DNA of 64,000 bases from Acidobacteria bacterium AB60 (GTDB taxonomy: Bacteria; Acidobacteriota; Terriglobia; Terriglobales; Acidobacteriaceae): NCBI GenBank assembly GCA_008682415.1, contig VANK01000011.1, forward strand, positions 62,001-126,000, read 5' to 3'. Below, piece after piece: positions 26,437 to 62,181 of this stretch (the stretch's first letter is position 1; the number at the start of each line of letters is the position of its first letter). The translations under genes were made by a program, and so were the position numbers. A model generated the notes under the pieces. The model was not told the DNA's origin. It did no database searches and saw nothing but the letters and a program-made list of their open reading frames with translations.

Positions 26437-26477
26437 GCCGGGATGGCGGAACTGGCAGACGCAGCGGACTCAAAATC
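26437..26477 (+). pseudogene. 5' half of tRNA-Leu(CAA), interrupted: attachment-site junction
   Basis: The acceptor strand GCCGGGA, D arm, and anticodon arm GCGGA-CTCAAAA with anticodon CAA (26471-26473) match a leucine tRNA. The 3' side of the anticodon stem should read TCCGC but reads TCGTC, and no T arm follows. The tRNA is therefore cut within the anticodon arm. An integrase gene starts 134 bases later, so this is most likely the att junction of the integrated element. Confidence 0.75.
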
Positions 26478-26610: not shown

Positions 26611-27891
26611 ATGGCAGAGCATTACACCATCCTCGGTGGCAAAGTTCACGTCTATAAGCGTCCGAACAGTTCCAGTTGGCAATGTGCGACCTATCTGGCC
26701 GGAAAGAACCGGCGCGCCACTACCAAGGAAGACAGCCTCTCCAAAGCGAAGGAGTTCGCGGAAGACTGGTATTTGCAGTTGCGCGGCAAGCTGCGCGATG
26801 GCCAGTTGAAGACCGGCAAACTGTTCCGCGATGCTGCAAAGCTGTACCTCCGCGAGTTCGACATCATGACACAGGGGCAGCGTAGTGCGAAATACGCGAG
26901 CGGACAGCACGCGCGTACCAATGGCTATCTGATCCCGTTCTTCGGCAACATGGTGCTACCCGAGATCACAGCGGGCAGGGTCAACGAATATCGCGTGCAT
27001 CGACTTGAACAGTCCAAAGCCTTGCGGGGCAAGCCGCCAGCGCGTAGCACCACGCACCAGGAGATCGTGACGCTGCGCCAGATCTTCAAAACGGCACTGC
27101 GGCATGGATGGATCGATCATCTCCCGGATTTGTCAGCACCATATCGCGCATCCGCCAAGATTTCCCATAGAGCATGGTTCTCACCGGAAGAGTACAAGCA
27201 GCTTTATGAGGCAACGCGGAAACGCGCCCAGGACCCAAAGCAGCCCCGTTTTCGTTGGGAGGCTGAGCAGCTTCACGATTATGTTCTGTTCTCCGCCAAC
27301 ACCGGACTCCGCCCCGACGAGGCGAGGCGTCTTCAGTTCCGCGATGTCACGGTGACCGAAGACGAGGGAAGCGGCCAAACCATCCTTGAGATCGAAGTAC
27401 GTGGGAAGCGAGGCGTTGGTTATTGCAAGAGCACCACAGGTGCCGTGCATCCGTTCGAGCGACTGAAAGCCCGCCCACGTCCAGACGGAGGGCCGGGAAG
27501 ATCAGGCAGCCGTACCGCATCTATGGCAAACGGTGAGTGGCACGCGCCTGGACCCACAGATCTTCTGTTCCCGAAATGGCCGCGCGAGTTGTTCAACGCA
27601 ATCCTTGAGGAAGAAAAGCTTCGCACCGACCGTGACGGAAGGCCGCGAACCGCATATAGTCTGCGCCACACCTACATCTGTCTGCGCCTGCTTGAAGGTG
27701 CCGACATCTATCAGATTGCTAAGAATTGCCGGACCAGTGTGGAGATGATTGAGAAATTCTATGCGGCACATTTGAAGACACAACTCGATGCCTCGGCCAT
27801 CAACATCATGAGGCCACGGTCGAAGAAAAAGACGGTTCCCAGGAAAGGCCCCGGACGAGTGGATGCCATCCGTTTAGCTGAGGAAGCGTAG
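26611..27891 (+). CDS. int: Tyrosine-type site-specific integrase
   Basis: A 426-residue phage/ICE-type integrase, located at the left end of the mobile region next to the cut tRNA-Leu. The core-binding domain covers residues of about 75-165. The catalytic domain shows TGLRPDEARRL (first Arg), YSLRHTYI (His-region and second Arg) and the nucleophile region MIEKFYAAHL. The GGAGG of the ribosome-binding site lies 10 bases before ATG. The tail is basic (RPRSKKKTVPRKGPGR). A hairpin-rich stretch follows the stop codon. By position it should mediate integration and excision at the tRNA. Confidence 0.95.
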   Translation: MAEHYTILGGKVHVYKRPNSSSWQCATYLAGKNRRATTKEDSLSKAKEFAEDWYLQLRGKLRDGQLKTGKLFRDAAKLYLREFDIMTQGQRSAKYASGQHARTNGYLIPFFGNMVLPEITAGRVNEYRVHRLEQSKALRGKPPARSTTHQEIVTLRQIFKTALRHGWIDHLPDLSAPYRASAKISHRAWFSPEEYKQLYEATRKRAQDPKQPRFRWEAEQLHDYVLFSANTGLRPDEARRLQFRDVTVTEDEGSGQTILEIEVRGKRGVGYCKSTTGAVHPFERLKARPRPDGGPGRSGSRTASMANGEWHAPGPTDLLFPKWPRELFNAILEEEKLRTDRDGRPRTAYSLRHTYICLRLLEGADIYQIAKNCRTSVEMIEKFYAAHLKTQLDASAINIMRPRSKKKTVPRKGPGRVDAIRLAEEA

Positions 27892-28106: not shown

Positions 28107-29345
28107 CTAGTGCTGCCGTTGTTTGTCTTTTGCTTGAACCTGGAGTAGCTCCTCCGGCGTGAGTAGAGCTTTGTTGCATGCATAGGAAAAGCCACTCATG
28201 CAGCTCGCATAGTTCCTTCGGAGATCGCTTTCTTGCACTCTAGAAAGCTCTTCTGGCGTTAGGAGTCTCTTATTGCAGGCATAGGAGAAACCATTCATGC
28301 AAGAAGAGTAATTTCGTCGGAGGTCACTTGTCCCTACCGCAACTGCCTCTTCCGGCGTAAGCAGAGCCTTGTTGCATGCATAGGAAAAACCGTTCATGCA
28401 GCTCGAATAATTCCTTCGGAGGTCACTGGCCTTCACTGTCGCAGCTTCGTCCGCCGTGAGAAGGTTCTTATTGCAGGCATAAGAGAAGCCGTTCATGCAG
28501 GACGAATAGTTTCGCCGAAGATCACTTGCCTCTACATTAGCCGCTTCCTCTGGAGTAAGAAGAGTCTTGTTGCAAGCGTACGAGAACCCGTTCAAGCAAC
28601 TCGAATAATTTTTCGGATCGGAGTGCTCAACGACGCGGCGCGTCGGCGGCATTGTTACTGTTTCTGTGACAGGTGGGGGTATTGATTTCGGGACCTGGAC
28701 GTCAGGCGTTGCGATAGCAGGCAAAGTTGTGGGGGCGGGGCTTCCTTGGAAAGTACCGCTCGGTGGCCGGTTCATCTCAGATGTACGGTCCAGAGTGAAC
28801 GTGCCCTTTTCAATTCCGCCGCCGGGCTGTGCGACGGTATAGGTCCCCGCGATTCTCTGTTGGCTCCGTACTCCCACAAAGGTGATCTTTCCGATGGAAC
28901 TCGTCACCGTGAATGCGACGTTTGGGCCGCTTATGGACCCTTCCAATGATCCGCTGCCGTAAAGTGGAGGCTTTACCGTCATCGACCCAGAAAGAGTGTC
29001 ACCGGTTTCCTGAAGTTTGATTGCGAAGTTGGCAGACACCGCTGCGGTCTCGTTGTAAACGGAGCCGGCATAGTCACCGGCCACCGATGACAGTGATGCG
29101 GGCGGTACCCCCGATTGTGCCGAAGAGACTGGAGCTTTGAGGTCCCGGGGTCTGGATGACGCAACGACAGGGCTGCTGGCCTGCATCGCGACGGGCGCAC
29201 TGGAAATAGGCGCTGCAACGGAACTCGGTTGATAATGGTGGTCGTCAACGAAAGGGACGTTCACCAGGATCAAAAGGGCAATGGCGATGATCCACGCCTT
29301 TGTCGTGGTTTTGACGTTCGCCGCTTTTGTGAACAGGTCAGTCAT
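28107..29345 (-). CDS. Membrane-anchored protein with five Cys-containing repeats
   Basis: A 412-residue protein of unknown function. Residues 15-35 are a membrane helix (AWIIAIALLILVNVPFV). A proline/serine-rich linker leads to a beta-rich domain at about 88-190 (GDYAGSVYNETAAV, GSGSLEGSISGPNVAF), resembling a small lipocalin-like barrel. Residues 246-412 are five near-identical 33-residue repeats with the core NYSSCMNGFSYACNK, LLTPEEA and SDLRRNY, each with two cysteines eight residues apart. It is the last gene of the run of minus-strand genes containing the kinase triad, 203 bases after the kinase gene. A role as a redox, metal or partner-binding target of the triad is inference. Confidence 0.75.
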   Translation of the reverse strand: MTDLFTKAANVKTTTKAWIIAIALLILVNVPFVDDHHYQPSSVAAPISSAPVAMQASSPVVASSRPRDLKAPVSSAQSGVPPASLSSVAGDYAGSVYNETAAVSANFAIKLQETGDTLSGSMTVKPPLYGSGSLEGSISGPNVAFTVTSSIGKITFVGVRSQQRIAGTYTVAQPGGGIEKGTFTLDRTSEMNRPPSGTFQGSPAPTTLPAIATPDVQVPKSIPPPVTETVTMPPTRRVVEHSDPKNYSSCLNGFSYACNKTLLTPEEAANVEASDLRRNYSSCMNGFSYACNKNLLTADEAATVKASDLRRNYSSCMNGFSYACNKALLTPEEAVAVGTSDLRRNYSSCMNGFSYACNKRLLTPEELSRVQESDLRRNYASCMSGFSYACNKALLTPEELLQVQAKDKQRQH

Positions 29346-29547: not shown

Positions 29548-31161
29548 TCACGGTGAACACACGCTGCACGCTCTATATCCACGGCCCTTCGCATCCGCCT
29601 CCGAGGTAAACTGTACCCGGTTCCGGTACGAAATCTTGATCGCCCATTTGCAAGATGGCTTATGGTAAATCAGCCTGATCTTACTCCCGACCAGAGACAC
29701 GTTGCCGACCGTCGTGGTCCTTTTGGTAGAAACCCTGCTCGGCGCTGGCTGGGAGCGGGTTACGGGCGCTGAACGCGCAGCCGGGATGGGTATGGAAACG
29801 GACGGCGACGCCGTCAAGCTTGCGGGTTTCGACGAAAAGACTGGCGGCCTCGCCTCTTTTTTGGTGCGCCGGTAAGCAAGGAGCGCACAGGCAGTCGCGT
29901 ACGTCATGATAGACAGCCATGTCGCCGCCAGAGACGAAGCGCCAAGTCCGATAAACGATGACCGGAACAACGGCACCCACAACCAAACCAGAAAAATCCC
30001 CATAAATGCGTAGGTGACGGTATGCCGCACGACGTCGCGCGGTGATATCTGAATTGCAGCGACCCCTGTGGTGGCAGACGATTGTGCTACTCCGGAAACA
30101 CTGGATGCGGTCGCTGTATACCAGGGCTGTGATTGGCCCCCATTACTGCCGGCGTGTGGCGGAGAGCTTGACGCGGGCGGTGGTGTCTGGCCTGGCTTAA
30201 CCTCGCGCGTTGCCTGCTGGACGGTAACGACAGGGGAGTTGACCATCCAAGCCGGTAGCTTCGAAGGCGTCGTGGTGACGAGGTCGAGTGCTGATGGGCA
30301 GCGCGAGGGATGTTCGGAGCACGCCTTTTCGAGTGCGTTCGCCAGGCGTTGTGAATCGCCGCCTATGGCTTTCACCTTGTTCAAGAGTTTCGACGTTCGG
30401 GGATTTTCAAAGTCGCTTTTCGTAAAGATGAGGTTTTCATCATGAAATTCGTTCCATAGGCTTGGCTGTTCCGCGAGTGCGACAAAGGAAAGATAGATGA
30501 CGAGGCCGGAAAAGTTATCGAGCGTGGCATCGAAGTAACTCGGGGTTCTCTTCGGGTGCTGGTAGTGGCGATGGCCGAGTTCCGAGGACTGCCAGCCCGC
30601 CATCGCGGGTACATACATGCCGTCAAGGTCCACAAGACGCAAGGAATTGCTTTCGTCCACGATGATGTTGCCATGCTGGAGGTCACCGTGCGCCATAGAT
30701 CCGTCACGCAGGGTCGCCAGTGCCTTGAGCCATTGATCGGCAAGGAATTTCAGCATGTCCCTTCTACCGAGGACATTGGGGAGATACACGTCGAGCGGAA
30801 ATCCGCCGATCCATTCCATGACCTGGATCGGATAGCGCTTTCCCCCGGCCATGATCCCTTGTGGGTCGTACTCGAAGCTCACAAAACAGGGCGCGGATAC
30901 CTTGTCAAGGTGATCGTCAATCCTCTGATATCGGTCTTCACGATCTCCGACACTCCCTCGAAAGCAGCGAACAGCCTGCGCCTTACCATTGGCACTGTTC
31001 ATCTTGAAGACATAGGCAAATTGCCCAGATGTTACGAAGGGCATTCCGAGCCGGTCAACCGCAGCAGTCGATGTCTTAAGGTCGGGGTCTTGAAACGCCA
31101 GGGCAGGGTTCTGGACTGCTTCGACGTAGTCGCGCGAGCTGGGCCACTGACCGGTGGGCAT
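29548..31161 (-). CDS. Membrane protein kinase of a TerY-P-type triad
   Basis: A 537-residue Ser/Thr-kinase-like protein. The kinase domain (about residues 35-290) has the catalytic loop HGDLQHGNIIVD and LVDLDGMYVP, where DLD takes the place of DFG. Two membrane helices follow at about 390-450 (VTYAFMGIFLVWLWVPLF and WLSIMTYATACALLAY). The C-terminal 45 residues carry Cys and His (YHKPSCKWA ... GYRACSVCSP) like the small zinc-binding domain found at the end of Ada- and nuclease-type proteins. With a phosphatase and a VWA protein upstream it completes the set known as the TerY-phosphorylation triad. The start gives a 25-base gap after the phosphatase gene. Confidence 0.85.
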   Translation of the reverse strand: MPTGQWPSSRDYVEAVQNPALAFQDPDLKTSTAAVDRLGMPFVTSGQFAYVFKMNSANGKAQAVRCFRGSVGDREDRYQRIDDHLDKVSAPCFVSFEYDPQGIMAGGKRYPIQVMEWIGGFPLDVYLPNVLGRRDMLKFLADQWLKALATLRDGSMAHGDLQHGNIIVDESNSLRLVDLDGMYVPAMAGWQSSELGHRHYQHPKRTPSYFDATLDNFSGLVIYLSFVALAEQPSLWNEFHDENLIFTKSDFENPRTSKLLNKVKAIGGDSQRLANALEKACSEHPSRCPSALDLVTTTPSKLPAWMVNSPVVTVQQATREVKPGQTPPPASSSPPHAGSNGGQSQPWYTATASSVSGVAQSSATTGVAAIQISPRDVVRHTVTYAFMGIFLVWLWVPLFRSSFIGLGASSLAATWLSIMTYATACALLAYRRTKKEARPPVFSSKPASLTASPSVSIPIPAARSAPVTRSQPAPSRVSTKRTTTVGNVSLVGSKIRLIYHKPSCKWAIKISYRNRVQFTSEADAKGRGYRACSVCSP

Positions 31162-31186
31162 AGGCTTTTGTCATACCGCCGTTATT

Positions 31187-31939
31187 TCAGTCAACAGTAA
31201 TTCTGAGCACCGCTACGTCATCGTTGCGAAGAGATTTGTCCGCTCGCTCACGCTCTACGAAGCTCTCAAAACCCGGAGTATCTCTGGCGTCCAGTAGCCG
31301 GGCCAACTCCTGAACACGCAATGGATTCTCCGCGGTGCTACGAAGATACCAAGCCGCGATGGCGTCGGTTAATAGGACAAATGTGTCGTGCTGAGCGGTA
31401 TCTCCGCTTGCCACTGTGACCTGCTCGCCAATGCCTCGCAGGCGCTGCCGATTGGAGGGAAGGAGCGCCGGATGATATCCGAAAGCTTCCGGCTCGCTGA
31501 TCGGCAGAGCGGTGACAATCACCCCCTCACGTATCTGGACAAGGCAGCTATCTCCAACAGCAACCGCCTGCCAAACGAGACGCTCCTCCGACGGGATAAA
31601 GGCGAGTCCGACGAAGGCGGCAAAGGCACCGCTGCGCGCTTTTTCCTCCGCATACCACGGCAAGGTCTTCCGGCTCCATCGCCTCTCTAGGTGGTTGCCG
31701 AGTCGAGCCAACCACGGCTCGAATTCGTCTTTTGTCAGCAGGTGATTGCTTGCCGCCCAGTACCGGGTTAAGAGCTTCGCCCAACGGCGTGAGTCATACG
31801 CTTCGGTTGCTCCGTCGGCGACGCAGAAACGCCTTTGCCTGAGAGACAGGGCCGTCGCATCCTCACACTCGGAAGCCAGCAAGCCTGCCTTCGGCAACAG
31901 AAATTGCGCGACAGAGAGGTGCCAATCGCTGCCCTTCAT
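31187..31939 (-). CDS. PP2C-like protein phosphatase of the triad
   Basis: A 250-residue metal-dependent phosphatase-fold protein. Motifs include CEDATALSLRQRRFCVADGATE (metal-binding Asp-Gly), AVGDSCLVQIREG and the C-terminal NDDVAVLRI, matching PP2C positions that hold Mg/Mn. It would reverse phosphorylation by the neighbouring kinase. The gene overlaps the VWA gene by 4 bases (ATGA), so the two are translationally coupled. The length matches the short PP2C forms found in TerY-P sets. Confidence 0.85.
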   Translation of the reverse strand: MKGSDWHLSVAQFLLPKAGLLASECEDATALSLRQRRFCVADGATEAYDSRRWAKLLTRYWAASNHLLTKDEFEPWLARLGNHLERRWSRKTLPWYAEEKARSGAFAAFVGLAFIPSEERLVWQAVAVGDSCLVQIREGVIVTALPISEPEAFGYHPALLPSNRQRLRGIGEQVTVASGDTAQHDTFVLLTDAIAAWYLRSTAENPLRVQELARLLDARDTPGFESFVERERADKSLRNDDVAVLRITVD

Positions 31940-32769
31940 CGAAGATTCGCTGGGCGGGTCCCTATCTCAAAGAATTGTGCGACCGAGACGGGGTCTCCGT
32001 TGAAGACGAAACCTCGGGCACCTTCAGCGGTGCTTAGGCCGATATCGGAAGCTGCCCGTCGAAACGCTTCGGGGAGAGGTGTCGATATTCTGAACAGCGT
32101 ACGGGCGAAATCATCGGGGAGCCTGGATTCATCTCCCGGATATTCGATCTTCATCGTGTGGCGAGACGAAACATGGCAGTTGAACAGTAATACCGGCCCA
32201 TCGTTGGTGCTCATGGATATGATCTGCTGTGCTACTCCGGAAGGGTCCCCATCCGTCGATTCGCCGTCCGTGAGGTGCAGCACCGTCGGCGGAAAACTAT
32301 TACGGTGTTCTGGGAGCCATTGCTCCAGCAACGAGCGAACCTGACCGAAGGCATCGCACATCGGGGTGCCCCCGTTCGATGTCGGATCCATCCATACGGG
32401 GAACCTGACCTGCTGTTCCACAAGCCCTCCTGCGCCGTCTGGAACCTTCTTGGCACGGCTGTCGAGTCGGGCTGGAAGGTCGGCCACCTCTCCCACCGGC
32501 ACATGTGCACGTCCACTGAGTGATCCGCTGAAGGCAGGCCCGACGGAAGCGCCATATCCAATGATCGAGATGTGGTAGTAGTTGCGAATCTCTTCCATCC
32601 GGGTGCAGCGAATAACGAGATCGTGCAATGTGCGATTGACGACATCGGCGACAAAATCGGCTTTGCGAATCCCGCCCTCTCCGAACCCTTCGGACATCGA
32701 TCCTGACTGGTCTAACAGAAAGATGAAGCAGGTGGGATTGCTGCGGCTGATTTCCGCTGTATAAGGCAT
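31936..32769 (-). CDS. VWA-domain protein, TerY-like
   Basis: A 277-residue protein consisting mostly of one von Willebrand A domain. The metal-ion adhesion site is intact: FLLDQSGSMSEGF (DXSXS), with later NGGTPMCDAF and HLTDGESTDGDP. There is no signal peptide, so it is cytoplasmic. In TerY-P sets the VWA protein is thought to be the phosphorylated switch or scaffold. It is the second gene of the set, 27 bases after an XRE regulator on the same strand. Confidence 0.88.
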   Translation of the reverse strand: MPYTAEISRSNPTCFIFLLDQSGSMSEGFGEGGIRKADFVADVVNRTLHDLVIRCTRMEEIRNYYHISIIGYGASVGPAFSGSLSGRAHVPVGEVADLPARLDSRAKKVPDGAGGLVEQQVRFPVWMDPTSNGGTPMCDAFGQVRSLLEQWLPEHRNSFPPTVLHLTDGESTDGDPSGVAQQIISMSTNDGPVLLFNCHVSSRHTMKIEYPGDESRLPDDFARTLFRISTPLPEAFRRAASDIGLSTAEGARGFVFNGDPVSVAQFFEIGTRPANLR

Positions 32770-32796
32770 TGACGCATCTCCTTCGATCCAGTTCGT

Positions 32797-33075
32797 TCAG
32801 CGTGGCACGTGCTTCAGCCGGACTCCAGGCTGCTCATCGTTCAAAAATTCCACGCCAGCCTTCTCCAGCACCGCAATAACCTGTCCCAGCGTTTCGGTGC
32901 GAGCTTTGACAGCATCGTCAAACTTCTCCATGCGCTTGATTGTGCCGACCGCAACCTTCGACTTTTTCGAAAGTTCGCTCTGCGACCATCCAAGGAGAGC
33001 TCTCGCTGCACGTAAATGTCTTCCAGTCAGAGTAATCAATGCAGAAACATAGCACAATTCGACCAATAAGCCCAA
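32797..33075 (-). CDS. XRE-family transcriptional regulator
   Basis: A small HTH protein of up to 92 residues. The helix-turn-helix is LRAARALLGWSQSELSKKSKVAVGTIKRME, followed by a short tail (VLEKAGVEFLNDEQPG). There is no ATG in frame near the domain; the start is a TTG, either at 33075 or nearer the HTH at 33039. It lies first in the run of genes leading to the triad, so it probably controls it, and it faces a divergent operon across a palindromic intergenic region. Confidence 0.8.
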   Translation of the reverse strand: MGLLVELCYVSALITLTGRHLRAARALLGWSQSELSKKSKVAVGTIKRMEKFDDAVKARTETLGQVIAVLEKAGVEFLNDEQPGVRLKHVPR

Positions 33076-45812: not shown

Positions 45813-46019
45813 ATGAGTGGAAACCAACAGCAGTACCGCATCGGGCGCAAAGGCGCTCTTGAATACGTCGTGGTTCGTTGCCCGAATGGGCATCTGAGCC
45901 AGGGTCAGAAGGTCGATGACCTGAAATTCAGGCAGATACTGACCTGCACAAACCCAACCTGCAATGCCCAGTGGACGTTGGTTCTTCCTTCCGTTCTGGG
46001 TTATGAAGCCATCGAATGA
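45813..46019 (+). CDS. Small zinc-ribbon protein
   Basis: A 68-residue protein with four cysteines in two pairs (VVRCPNGHLSQ and ILTCTNPTCNAQW), probably one zinc site. The start is ATG 45813, preceded by AAAGGAAC; an upstream GTG at 45732 overlapping the previous stop would add 27 residues. Its last 4 bases overlap the relaxase ATG. A helper for the relaxase is likely from position only. Confidence 0.65.
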   Translation: MSGNQQQYRIGRKGALEYVVVRCPNGHLSQGQKVDDLKFRQILTCTNPTCNAQWTLVLPSVLGYEAIE

Positions 46020-48763
46020 TTACGCTGTCAAAGCCCATCAGCTCCGGCCAGGCGCAGGCGTACCACAAGGAAGAGTTCGCCAACGCCAGGGAGAACTACT
46101 ACACGGAAGGCGAGCGTGTGCGCGGCGAGTGGCAGGGCCAACTTGCCGCGCGATGGGGCTTGCAGGGTGAAGTTCAAGAGCAACAGTTCGCGCGGCTGGC
46201 CGAGGGCCAGCACCCGGAGACGGGCGAGCAGTTAGTGCGGCATCAGACGGCGCGGGAGTACGTCAATGCCAATGGCGAAACCGTGCGCACGATGGAACAC
46301 AGGGCGGGATGGGATGCGACGTTCAGCGCACCGAAGAGTGTATCTCTGACCGCGTTGGTTGGCGGTGATGATCGAATACGCGAGGCCCACAGGGAAAGCG
46401 TGCGCACGGCGCTCGACGAGATGGAGAAGTACGCACAGGCGCGCATGGGCGGCAACGTCCCGGCGCAGACGACGGGCCAGTGGGCAGTCGCCAAGTTCGA
46501 GCATGACAGCAGCAGGCCCGTTGATGGCTACGCTGCGCCGCAGTTGCACACGCATGCGGTGATCTTCAATATGACCGAAACGGCGGAGGGCCAGACGCGC
46601 GCGCTTCAGCCGCAGGAACTTTACAAGACGCAGCAGTACGCGACGGCGGTGTACCGCTCGGAACTAGCGGCACGGTTGCAGGAACTTGGCTACGAAATCG
46701 AGCGCGGCGCGCACGGACAGCCGGAAATCAGGGGCTACACACGCGAGTATCTGGAGGCGTCTAGTCCTCGACGGCAGCTGATCGAAGAGCACATGGAGAA
46801 GGCCGGAGTGCGCGGAGCTGGCGCCGCGCAGATCGCGGCGCACCAGACGCGCGACACCAAGCAGCCGCTCTCACATGAAGAGGTGCGAGCGCAGCATCAG
46901 AGACTCGCCGCCGAACACGGCCAGCAGCCGCAGCGCATCGTGACGGAAGCTGCGCACCGTGAGGGTGTGGAGTTGAGGCCGGAGCAGTCTGGCGTTGCCG
47001 CCCAGCAGGGCGTGGCCTATGCACGTGAGCGCGGTATGGAGCGCGAGGCGGTTGCAGACGAAAGAACGCTGATGCGCGATGCCCTCAAGCACACGATGGG
47101 CGAGGCCAAGTTGCCGGAAGTTCGCGCCGAGTTCGAGCGGCGCGTGGGACACCAGGAGCTGATCGAAGTGGAGCGCAGGGCGGGACTCGCAGGCCGCGCG
47201 TTCACGACCGGCGAAATGCAAGGTTTTGAGCGCGAGCTAATCGAGCGGATGAAACTGAACCAGGGCACGCGCGAGGTATTGGCAGACGGCCAAATACGGC
47301 AGGAAACGATGGAGCAGCATCCCCACTTGAGCATGAGCCAGCGGCACGCGGTCGAAGATGTGCTGACGAGCCGCGACCGCATGATGGCTCTCGAAGGCGT
47401 AGCCGGAGGCGGAAAAACGACTTCGCTAGCCGCTGTCCGTGAAGGGGCCGAGCGCGCAGGCTATCAGGTCGAAGGGCTCGCACCGACATCGAGGGCCGCG
47501 CAGAAACTCTCCGAAGCTGGCATCGAAACGCGAACATTGCAAAAGCATCTTGCTCGGGGCGAGCAGCCCGACGACAGACAGAAACGGCTCTACGTGGTCG
47601 ATGAATCGAGCATGGCAAGCACGAAGCAGTTACACACGTTCGTGGAGCGGCTGAAGGAAAACGACCGCGTGCTGTTCGTAGGCGACATCCGGCAGCATGA
47701 GGCGGTCGAAGCGGGACGGCCCTATGCGCAGTTGCAGGAAGCAGGAATGCGCACGGCCAGACTGGATGAGATCATCCGGCAGAAAGACCCGGCGCTCAAA
47801 GAGGCTGTGGAGCAGCTTGCACGCGGCGAAGTGCGCGAGGCCATCGGAAACCTATCGAGCCAGGGCCGCGTGCATGAAATTGGAGACCGGCAGGAACGCA
47901 TCATCGAAATTGCTCGCGAGTACGCGCGCTCACCTGAAAAGACATTGGTCGTCTCGCCCGACAACGCCTCACGCCGCGAGATCAACGAGGCCATCCATCG
48001 CACGATGCAGAACGAGGGCAAAGTCAGCAATAACGAGCAGCGTGTACACGTGCTCTACGCGCGGCTGGATGTGACCGGCGCGGATCGGCAGCACGCGCAG
48101 AACTACGAGAAGGGCGACGTACTGCGCTACTCGAAAGGCAGTAAGCCTCTCGGCATCGAGGCAGGAGAATATGCGCGAGTGTCGCGCGTGGACCGCGAAA
48201 GCAACACGCTCACTGTGAAGCGGCACGGCGGCGTGGAGCTGAGCTACGATCCGCGCCGCTTGCAGGGTGTGACTGTCTATCGCGACAGTGAGCGCAAGTT
48301 TGCCGAGGGCGACCGCGTGCAACTCACAGCGCCCTACCATGAGCAGAAACTCGCTAACCGCGAACTAGCGACTATCGAGCGGATCGAAGGCGACGGCGGT
48401 CTGAAACTCCGCACGGACTCGGGGCGCGAAGTCGAATTCAATGCAAGGCAGCATCCGCATCTGGATTACGGCTATGCAGTGACGAGCCACAGCAGCCAGG
48501 GTCAGACCGCAGACCGCGTGCTGATCCACGTGGACACGGAGCAGGCTCCCGGCGAGCTCGTCAACCGCCGCATGGCTTATGTGTCGGTGTCGCGCGCTCA
48601 GTTCGACGTGCAGATGTACACGAACGACGCGAAGGCACTAGGATACGGGTTGAGCCGCGATGTCTCGCACCCGAGCGCGATCCAGCAAGAGCCAGCGGAA
48701 ACGCACAAAATTGAGCCGCAATCGGAAAGCATACAAGCTGCGCAAGTCTTGAGCGTGGGATAG
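46016..48763 (+). CDS. MobF-family conjugative relaxase (TrwC/TraI-like)
   Basis: A 915-residue protein that nicks oriT and unwinds DNA. The N-terminal TrwC relaxase domain has a tyrosine pair at residues 28-29 (ENYYTEG) and the metal-binding histidines in PQLHTHAVIFN; MEHRAGWDATFSAPKSVS is a family hallmark. The helicase part starts near residue 440, with Walker A GVAGGGKTTS (about 461), YVVDESSMAS, and the UvrD-like end with YGYAVTSHSSQGQTADRV and YVSVSRAQFDVQMYT. It ends the mobilisation operon. No mating-pair genes follow in the window. Confidence 0.95.
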   Translation: MITLSKPISSGQAQAYHKEEFANARENYYTEGERVRGEWQGQLAARWGLQGEVQEQQFARLAEGQHPETGEQLVRHQTAREYVNANGETVRTMEHRAGWDATFSAPKSVSLTALVGGDDRIREAHRESVRTALDEMEKYAQARMGGNVPAQTTGQWAVAKFEHDSSRPVDGYAAPQLHTHAVIFNMTETAEGQTRALQPQELYKTQQYATAVYRSELAARLQELGYEIERGAHGQPEIRGYTREYLEASSPRRQLIEEHMEKAGVRGAGAAQIAAHQTRDTKQPLSHEEVRAQHQRLAAEHGQQPQRIVTEAAHREGVELRPEQSGVAAQQGVAYARERGMEREAVADERTLMRDALKHTMGEAKLPEVRAEFERRVGHQELIEVERRAGLAGRAFTTGEMQGFERELIERMKLNQGTREVLADGQIRQETMEQHPHLSMSQRHAVEDVLTSRDRMMALEGVAGGGKTTSLAAVREGAERAGYQVEGLAPTSRAAQKLSEAGIETRTLQKHLARGEQPDDRQKRLYVVDESSMASTKQLHTFVERLKENDRVLFVGDIRQHEAVEAGRPYAQLQEAGMRTARLDEIIRQKDPALKEAVEQLARGEVREAIGNLSSQGRVHEIGDRQERIIEIAREYARSPEKTLVVSPDNASRREINEAIHRTMQNEGKVSNNEQRVHVLYARLDVTGADRQHAQNYEKGDVLRYSKGSKPLGIEAGEYARVSRVDRESNTLTVKRHGGVELSYDPRRLQGVTVYRDSERKFAEGDRVQLTAPYHEQKLANRELATIERIEGDGGLKLRTDSGREVEFNARQHPHLDYGYAVTSHSSQGQTADRVLIHVDTEQAPGELVNRRMAYVSVSRAQFDVQMYTNDAKALGYGLSRDVSHPSAIQQEPAETHKIEPQSESIQAAQVLSVG

Positions 48764-61721: not shown

Positions 61722-62181
61722 GGCTATCGTCTCTCCGGCTCCGATAACGGCCGCTCGATCTCGGCAACGCCAGCAGCTCGCAGACGTGGCGCTCGCTGGA
61801 CTTGAACTCTTCCAGCAAGCGCCGTACTTCCGATCTCCGCTCTACGAGCCCAGGGAGTTTTTTCGGATCACCGACTGGAGCATATCCTTGTCCAGGCTCG
61901 GATCGGCCACCAGCTTCTTCAACCGAGCGTTCTCGTCGCGCAGGTGCTTGACCTCTTCGGCCTCGCTTACTTCCATCCCGCCGTACTTCGCCTTCCAGGC
62001 ATAGATCGTGTGCTTGCTGACGCCCTGTTCCCGAGCCACATCATCGACCGTGCGACCTGCCTCAACCTGCTTCAGCGCAGCAATCATCTGCGCCTCCGTG
62101 TGCTTGCTTCGGCTCATCCGTCCTACCCCTTCCTTCGTCCAAATCGTATTCCGAAATGGACGGATTCAGGGGGTCAGGTCA
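61722..62181 (-). mobile_element. Truncated second copy of the IS3-family element
   Basis: These 460 bases match bases 53212-53670 of the complete copy with few differences, including the inverted end TGACCTGACCCCCTGAATCC. Only orfA and the start of orfB remain; the break is at GGCTATCGT. It lies between a RusA-like fragment and a recombinase fragment. Confidence 0.88.
61842..62117 (-). CDS. IS3-family OrfA (in truncated copy)
   Basis: An intact 91-residue OrfA beginning MSRSKHTEAQMIAALKQVE, with the HTH DVAREQGVSKHTIYAWKAKY and coiled end. It shows the normal start that the complete copy has lost. The element lacks most of orfB, so it cannot move by itself. Confidence 0.85.
   Translation of the reverse strand: MSRSKHTEAQMIAALKQVEAGRTVDDVAREQGVSKHTIYAWKAKYGGMEVSEAEEVKHLRDENARLKKLVADPSLDKDMLQSVIRKNSLGS

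What the first reader, a model, noticed from the sequence alone, without database searches (positions are those of the whole stretch)
29548..33075. XRE-controlled TerY-P-type kinase/phosphatase/VWA triad as mobile-element cargo
Three adjacent, partly overlapping genes encode a VWA protein with intact DXSXS, a PP2C phosphatase with intact metal motifs and a membrane kinase with HGDLQHGN. This is the TerY-phosphorylation triad described from comparative genomics and reported among predicted anti-phage systems. Here it is not linked to tellurite (ter) genes; it follows an XRE regulator and sits just inside an integrase-bearing element. The kinase is unusual: DLD instead of DFG, two membrane helices and a C-terminal Cys/His module.
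Basis: partly seen in the sequence, partly recalled or inferred. Interest (0 to 1): 0.8.

Follow-up and report, generated by a model that had tools for sequence, protein, structure and literature searches.

The report
TerY-P triad with Ada-like kinase tail
A three-gene kinase, phosphatase and metal-binding-protein set, of a kind reported to protect bacteria from viruses, is found here with a kinase that ends in an unusual Ada-like zinc module, on a mobile element that also carries a second virus-defence system.

Summary
The triad is real and is a TerY-P system. PADLOC profiles match the VWA over its full length (1e-100), the PP2C (3e-36) and the kinase domain (4e-68). What is distinctive is the kinase's C-terminus. 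Where TerY-P kinases are described with an OB-fold or zinc ribbon, this one ends in a zinc module that matches the DNA-binding N-domain of E. coli Ada by profile and fold, with Ada's Cys38 replaced by His. The module marks a clade: present in all 14 clade kinases with an uncut end, in 0 of 80 other family kinases; the VWA and PP2C trees agree. The predicted membrane segment is not distinctive: 58 of those 80 also have one. The triad is cargo of a 44.4-kb relaxase-bearing element that splits tRNA-Leu(CAA); two sister elements lack it; the same element carries Hachiman. The genome has no TerD. Most likely this is a TerY-P anti-phage variant: a new variant of a known kind. Ligand, substrate and phage protection are untested.

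The parts
31936..32769 (-). TerY-like VWA protein, 277 aa, intact MIDAS (DxSxS..T..D)
   Evidence: PADLOC TerY PDLC02224 1e-100, positions 1-277/277; MIDAS invariant in the 10 aligned
31187..31939 (-). PP2C phosphatase, 250 aa, metal-site Asp residues intact
   Evidence: PADLOC PP2C 3.3e-36; Pfam PP2C_2 1.1e-6, over its cut-off; alignment A3
29548..31161 (-). kinase, 537 aa: kinase domain, low-confidence linker, hydrophobic helical hairpin, linker, Ada-type zinc module
   Evidence: STK_OB 4.4e-68 over the kinase part only; model mean pLDDT 76.4, kinase fold Z 18.0 to PKR
30271..31146 (-). kinase domain (residues 6-297), HGDLQHGN, DLDG, Arg65 at the beta-3 Lys position
29851..30042 (-). predicted membrane hairpin (residues 374-437)
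   Evidence: hydropathy, one segment over threshold, and AlphaFold2 helices
29551..29712 (-). Ada-type zinc module (residues 484-537), presumed ligands H500, C504, C532, C535
   Evidence: PF02805 in 13 of 13 scanned relatives; profile match to 1ADN 5.9e-6; fold match to 1U8B TMq 0.87
28107..29345 (-). fourth, downstream gene: N-terminal hydrophobic segment, middle region, five 33-aa two-Cys repeats
   Evidence: homologues directly downstream of the triad in L013 and L021; repeats
32797..33075 (-). XRE regulator, local neighbour, not conserved with the triad
   Evidence: HTH_3 1.7e-5; no homologue in the 88 other loci searched
26437..26477 (+). attL: 5' half of the split host tRNA-Leu(CAA); 12-bp core at 26466-26477
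26611..27891 (+). tyrosine integrase of the element
   Evidence: phrog_1 integrase 1.4e-28; 94% identical homologue beside purL in a sister genome
43726..45735 (+). type IV coupling protein (TrwB/TraD type) of the element
   Evidence: PF10412 1.5e-75
46016..48763 (+). TrwC-type relaxase/helicase of the element
   Evidence: PF08751 7.1e-90

Best explanation
It is a variant of the TerY-P anti-phage system whose kinase carries an Ada-type zinc module, held as cargo by a 44.4-kb mobilisable element. Shown here: triad identity, intact metal and HGD motifs, conserved linkage, the Ada-type module and its clade, and carriage on one element together with Hachiman. Inferred: the kinase phosphorylates the VWA protein or a host or phage target; the PP2C removes the phosphate and keeps the system off; the VWA protein, through its MIDAS metal site, couples kinase and phosphatase as a switch. 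The kinase sits at the inner membrane with kinase domain and zinc module both cytoplasmic (in-out-in hairpin, basic residues after the second helix, read by eye). The zinc module takes the slot that an OB-fold or zinc ribbon takes in described TerY-P kinases and would read a nucleic-acid or protein signal of infection. It should not accept a methyl group as Ada does, because the acceptor Cys is His. In the subclade of this locus, a single-pass membrane protein encoded just downstream may be a partner.
For: Profiles. Linkage in 70 of 87 loci with a family kinase. The 16 loci form one clade in the VWA tree (support 1.0, 76 tips) and in the PP2C tree (0.954, 76 tips); the 15 whose kinase was long enough form one clade in the kinase-domain tree (0.982, 95 tips). 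Module pattern in 14 of 15 clade kinases (the other is cut by its contig end) and in 0 of 80 outside the clade. PF02805 in 13 of 13 scanned; 1ADN 5.9e-6 with His aligned to chain position 38; 1U8B TMq 0.87, 1.8 A. Element: the split tRNA-Leu is restored by joining the flanks; two sister elements lack the triad; 0 of 79 other genomes of the genus have the kinase beyond weak partial hits. Defence company: HamA 1.7e-106 and HamB 5.8e-185 in the same element; a type IIG restriction gene beside the L034 triad; LmuB-like and methylase/helicase genes beside a related integrase in the same genome. Literature: OB-fold TerY-P-like modules are stand-alone defence and act on T7-like phages (passages of PMC11090510 and PMC7699616, citing Gao 2020); TerY-P in PAO1 protects against Autographiviridae with most cells surviving, though some die (passages of PMC10889362).
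Against: No experiment for this clade came up in my searches. In L026, L028 and L030 the triad sits in a shared neighbourhood with a membrane protein upstream and an OPT transporter downstream, which looks more like resident signalling than mobile defence. The beta-3 lysine is Arg here and in 69 of 95 relatives, so catalysis is assumed, not shown. The same His-Cys3 Ada-type ending occurs on a thermonuclease with a signal-like N-terminus, so the module need not be a DNA sensor or cytoplasmic. The hydrophobic segment is common across the family (58 of 80 outside the clade) and missing at my threshold in clade member L021. The 7 cargo proteins of the two sister elements that I scanned gave no PADLOC hit.
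Confidence: 0.68

Rival explanations
1. A general envelope or metal stress signalling triad (the Ter-type idea of a metal-sensing phosphorylation switch), with no direct role against phage; the Ada module senses metal or redox state.
For: Shared neighbourhood of the triad in L026, L028 and L030; presumed zinc-binding C-terminus and Cys repeats downstream; TerY-P was proposed as a metal-sensing switch (PMC11090510 passage citing Anantharaman 2012).
Against: No TerD in the genome; sporadic, mobile distribution here; shared element with Hachiman; TerY-P protects against phage elsewhere (PMC10889362 passages).
Confidence: 0.17
2. A phosphorylation-based toxin-antitoxin or element-maintenance module like KKP: the kinase is toxic when the PP2C is blocked, and the triad stabilises the element, with defence as a by-product.
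For: Kinase plus phosphatase packed together on a mobile element; KKP is a kinase-kinase-phosphatase toxin-antitoxin with defence (abstract of PMC11341870).
Against: One kinase rather than two, and a conserved VWA protein; copies in a shared, seemingly resident neighbourhood in L026, L028 and L030; most TerY-P cells survive infection in PAO1 (PMC10889362 passages).
Confidence: 0.1
3. A decayed or inactive remnant carried along with the element.
For: Arg at the beta-3 Lys position; a relative (L034) has its kinase split over two frames.
Against: All three reading frames are full length with intact metal and HGD motifs; Arg at that position is the commoner residue in the family (69 of 95); the L013 copy in another genus is 71, 72 and 87% identical (kinase, PP2C, VWA).
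Confidence: 0.05

Closest known systems
Stand-alone TerY-P anti-phage system (PADLOC TerY + PP2C + STK_OB; Gao 2020 as cited in PMC11090510 and PMC7699616)
   Same: VWA, PP2C and kinase domain match the family profiles and are linked as in relatives
   Different: The STK_OB profile matches only positions 3-296 of 562; the C-terminus is an Ada-type zinc module
CoCoNuT-associated TerY-P with kinase-zinc ribbon fusion (PMC11090510 passages)
   Same: Triad, and a presumed zinc module at the kinase C-terminus in the same slot
   Different: The module here is Ada-type; I saw no CoCoNuT genes among the window ORFs scanned, which were a part of all ORFs
KKP kinase-kinase-phosphatase module (PMC11341870, abstract read)
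   Same: Kinase and phosphatase module on a mobile element, linked to defence
   Different: Two kinases and, in the abstract, no VWA protein; prophage-borne
E. coli Ada N-domain (1ADN, 1U8B)
   Same: Fold and positions of the metal ligands
   Different: Cys at chain position 38 (methyl-acceptor, recalled) is His; no Pfam hit to other Ada domains in the window kinase

Membership tests
TerY-P triad | TerY-like VWA with intact MIDAS | tested here: met
   1e-100 over 277/277; MIDAS invariant in 10 aligned
TerY-P triad | PP2C-type phosphatase of the TerY-P family | tested here: met
   PDLC02222 3.3e-36; A3
TerY-P triad | Ser/Thr-type kinase of the TerY-P family | tested here: met
   PDLC02223 4.4e-68 over the kinase domain; HGDLQHGN and DxD as in the family; activity not measured
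TerY-P triad | Linked as one gene cluster in relatives | tested here: met
   70 of 87 loci with a family kinase; 16 of 16 loci of this clade
TerY-P triad | Protection against phage | not testable with these tools
   needs an experiment
TerY-P, OB-fold subtype (STK_OB) | C-terminal OB-fold on the kinase | tested here: not met
   Profile match stops at position 296 of 562; the C-terminus is PF02805-like
TerY-P, zinc-ribbon subtype (CoCoNuT) | C-terminal zinc ribbon on the kinase | tested here: not met
   C-terminal fold is N-Ada
TerY-P, zinc-ribbon subtype (CoCoNuT) | Linked cnu genes | tested here: inconclusive
   None among the window ORFs scanned, but only part of the ORFs was scanned
Ada methyltransferase | Methyl-acceptor Cys38 in the zinc site (role recalled) | tested here: not met
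   His at that place in the 12 modules aligned, aligned to position 38 of 1ADN
Ada-type zinc fold | N-Ada fold with four-ligand metal site | tested here: met
   PF02805 in 13 of 13; TMq 0.87 to 1U8B; zinc itself not measured
Tellurite (ter) operon | TerD-family genes | tested here: not met
   0 TerD hits in the genome; one TerC-family gene on another contig
KKP module | Two kinases and a phosphatase | tested here: not met
   One kinase and a VWA protein in the cluster

The most novel reading that the evidence does not exclude
A distinct class of TerY-P in which the infection sensor is an Ada-derived His-Cys3 zinc module held at the membrane, working with a single-pass envelope protein encoded downstream, so that phosphorylation is triggered where phage DNA enters the cell.
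Probability: 0.25. Interest if true: 0.67.

Novelty: new variant of a known kind. Interest (0 to 1): 0.5.

Why it matters
TerY-P is reported to protect against T7-like phages, but the passages I read give no account of what it senses. The kinase C-terminus is the swappable part (OB-fold, zinc ribbon, and here an Ada fold), which suggests that the sensor lies there. Four presumed ligand residues give clean mutants to test that. It also suggests that a DNA-repair zinc fold without its methyl-acceptor has been reused in what may be an immune sensor.

Tried and rejected
Phage origin: no VWA match in 50,697 phage records, and a viral-contig scan with the kinase alignment gave 66 pattern matches but no relative. 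Plasmids: two distant triads, in cyanobacteria, and one match to the C-terminus alone.

Led nowhere: the first genome-contig scan with the single kinase found no relative. phmmer of the C-terminus alone against the PDB gave nothing, whereas the 12-sequence profile did. purL-neighbour synteny in five relatives did not fix the right border; the split tRNA did. VIA-align rows cover mainly residues 14-308. One search also returned many clusters of antisense and out-of-frame ORFs, which I ignored.

Rows dropped and limits: L014 is the same locus as L025 and was left out of counts. The module loci were first found with an H-x3-C...C-x2-C pattern, so 'ligands kept' is circular for them; the clade test (kinase-domain tree against pattern) is the fair count. 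A4 holds 13 of the 16 kinases (L013 was not fetched by a tool accepted for folding, L031 is cut by its contig end, L034 is split by a frameshift). A5 holds 12 of the 15 modules (not L013, L030, L034). Trees: 95 of 103 kinase hits, 76 of 83 VWA hits and 76 of 78 PP2C hits were used (short, weak or second hits in a locus left out).

Literature: Gao 2020 and Anantharaman 2012 are not held and are cited only through other papers. I found no description of an Ada-type TerY-P kinase in the open library, but those two papers could contain one.
Full report
Observation. PADLOC profiles identify the VWA as TerY over its full length (1e-100, 277/277), the PP2C (3.3e-36) and the kinase domain as STK_OB (4.4e-68, profile positions 3-296 of 562). 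The genome has one match to the TerY profile and one to the PP2C profile. Metal-site residues of VWA and PP2C are invariant in the alignments (10 and 8 sequences).

The kinase domain. AlphaFold2 with 13 sequences gives a well-predicted kinase fold (10-residue blocks from 11 to 300 at pLDDT 83-97, with three blocks at 72-75), matching PKR at Z 18.0, rmsd 3.3 A, 251 residues. HGDLQHGN occurs in 90 of 95 family kinases. D-x-D stands at the DFG place in 95 of 95, so DLD is normal. The beta-3 lysine is Arg in 69 of 95, including this one. Catalysis is likely by family conservation but is not shown.

The C-terminus is the distinctive part. Beyond residue 300 there is a low-confidence linker, a hydrophobic helical hairpin (374-405, 410-437), another low-confidence linker, and a confident small domain at 490-537. 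Pfam's Ada metal-binding domain PF02805 is matched by 13 of 13 scanned kinases of the clade at E <= 0.1, best 2.5e-8; the window protein falls just below the curated cut-off (20.9 versus 23 bits, E 3.6e-4). A profile of 12 modules finds only N-Ada structures in the PDB at E <= 0.1 (four distinct sequences, 1ADN 5.9e-6), with the first ligand, His, aligned to the Cys at chain position 38. That Cys38 is Ada's methyl-acceptor is recalled. Folded alone the module has mean pLDDT 92.3, and its three best Foldseek matches are N-Ada entries (1U8B TMq 0.87, rmsd 1.8 A; E 0.025, so not strong by E-value alone).

It marks a clade. The genome-contig scan returned the 80 best of 508 confirmed relatives. 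Sixteen loci belong here: the window, L013 and L021-L034 (L025 being the same locus as L014). In the kinase-domain tree 15 of them (L034 is frameshifted) form one clade of 95 tips, support 0.982. In that clade the His-Cys3 pattern is present in 14 of 15, the other being cut by its contig end; among the 80 kinases outside it is present in 0. All 16 form one clade in the VWA tree (1.0) and the PP2C tree (0.954), 76 tips each, so the triad travels as a unit. By record title, of the 14 fetched, ten are Acidobacteriota (Pyrinomonadaceae checked), and one each Gemmatimonadetes, Verrucomicrobia, a Proteobacteria MAG and a Burkholderiales MAG. L025 lies in a genome listed as the same phylum as the window, so the window's host is probably an Acidobacteriota. 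A hydrophobic segment after the kinase domain is not special: 14 of 15 in the clade and 58 of 80 outside have one at my threshold. The triad is complete in 70 of 87 loci with a family kinase; the rest include contig-edge cases and lone kinases, many in Obscuribacterales.

Neighbours of the triad. The XRE gene has no homologue in the other 88 loci. The downstream gene 28107-29345 does recur: homologues lie just downstream of the triad in L013 (59% identity over residues 1-194) and L021. It has an N-terminal hydrophobic segment and five 33-aa repeats with two Cys each; L013 lacks the repeats, L021 has repeats without the middle region. By eye, L022 and L027 also have a short ORF with a hydrophobic N-terminus right after the kinase. 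Window, L013, L021 and L022 are a subclade (0.943). In 297 genomes of the phylum searched with this protein, 7 matched: the window's and L013's genomes, four through the repeats and one through the middle region.

The element. Integrase, TrwB-type coupling protein and TrwC-type relaxase are present. A 41-bp stretch at 26437 is the 5' half of tRNA-Leu(CAA); the 3' half lies at G000:C2:132879, about 7 kb beyond the window end. Joining the flanks restores a full tRNA-Leu(CAA), in this genome and in sister genome G345, giving core-to-core lengths of 44,413 and 16,217 bp. G345 has the element beside purL as here; G447 has a related one. Both share the integrase end (to 28031) and the relaxase end (from about 42.7 kb) with the window but not the stretch between, where the triad lies, apart from a 170-bp match at 35.2-35.4 kb. 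Among 80 genomes of the genus only this one has the kinase; 16 others gave weak partial hits, best 2.2e-5. In another genus, L013 lies in a low-GC stretch about 11 kb from an integrase (PF00589 8.6e-23) beside tRNA-Pro; L027's triad follows a tyrosine recombinase. So here the triad is swappable and probably recently acquired.

Defence company. The same element carries Hachiman HamA (1.7e-106) and HamB (5.8e-185) inside its right end. A second integrase in this genome, 66% identical, has LmuB-like and methylase/helicase genes beside it. The L034 triad is beside a type IIG restriction gene. Against this, L026, L028 and L030 share a neighbourhood with a membrane protein (UPF0259-like, below cut-off) and an OPT transporter, L026 and L030 being two copies in one MAG; and 7 cargo proteins of the two sister elements gave no PADLOC hit.

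Literature (passages only, except the abstract of PMC11341870). PMC11090510 states that TerY-P-like modules with an OB-fold kinase are stand-alone anti-phage systems (citing Gao 2020), that CoCoNuT TerY-P kinases carry a zinc ribbon, and suggests nucleic-acid binding for both. PMC7699616 says T7-like phages. PMC10889362 reports protection against Autographiviridae in PAO1 at low and high phage load, with most cells surviving and some dying. An Ada-type kinase is not described in these passages; the two primary papers were not available.

Mechanism. Most likely (0.68): a phosphorylation switch for defence at the membrane. Kinase and zinc module are inferred to be cytoplasmic, because basic residues follow the hairpin; the module takes the ligand-reading slot used by OB-fold or zinc ribbon elsewhere; VWA couples, PP2C resets. 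That most cells survive in PAO1 argues against obligatory suicide for TerY-P in general. Everything after anatomy, linkage and carriage is inference.

Noticed in passing
L113:3435-6505 (G000:C2, about 3.4-6.5 kb beyond the window end): Hachiman system (HamA, HamB, near full-length profile matches) inside the same mobile element, next to its right end.
   Followed up: yes
window:26437-26477 and L113:6612-6698: The element splits the host tRNA-Leu(CAA) at the anticodon loop and carries its own, different tRNA-Leu(CAA) just inside the right end, as does sister locus L129:2520-2606. A search with 24 bases of the host gene's 5' half (up to 3 mismatches) found no other CAA copy, so the element may have made itself needed; a dissimilar third gene is not excluded.
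   Followed up: partly
G000:C27:179570-229642 (L131): A second element of about 50 kb in the same genome, with a related integrase, between two matches to what looks by eye like a tRNA-Leu(TAA) half, with LmuB-like and methylase/helicase defence genes near the integrase.
   Followed up: partly
window:55053-60482: 1809-aa RHS-repeat protein inside the element.
   Followed up: no
window:53212-53670 and 61722-62181: Two near-identical stretches 8.5 kb apart (98-100%) overlapping an rve-type transposase end and flanking the RHS gene.
   Followed up: no
window:49264-51485: Two adjacent tyrosine recombinases on the minus strand beyond the relaxase, separate from the element's own integrase.
   Followed up: no
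window:36513-37697: Protein with MauJ and SEC-C domains in the variable cargo region.
   Followed up: no
L025, L026, L028, L029, L030 upstream of the triad: A homologous membrane protein with N-terminal Cys pairs lies upstream of the triad in five Acidobacteriota loci; in L026, L028 and L030 homologous OPT transporters lie downstream.
   Followed up: partly
L157:1027-1707: A thermonuclease on a Methanothrix plasmid ends in the same Ada-type His-Cys3 pattern.
   Followed up: no
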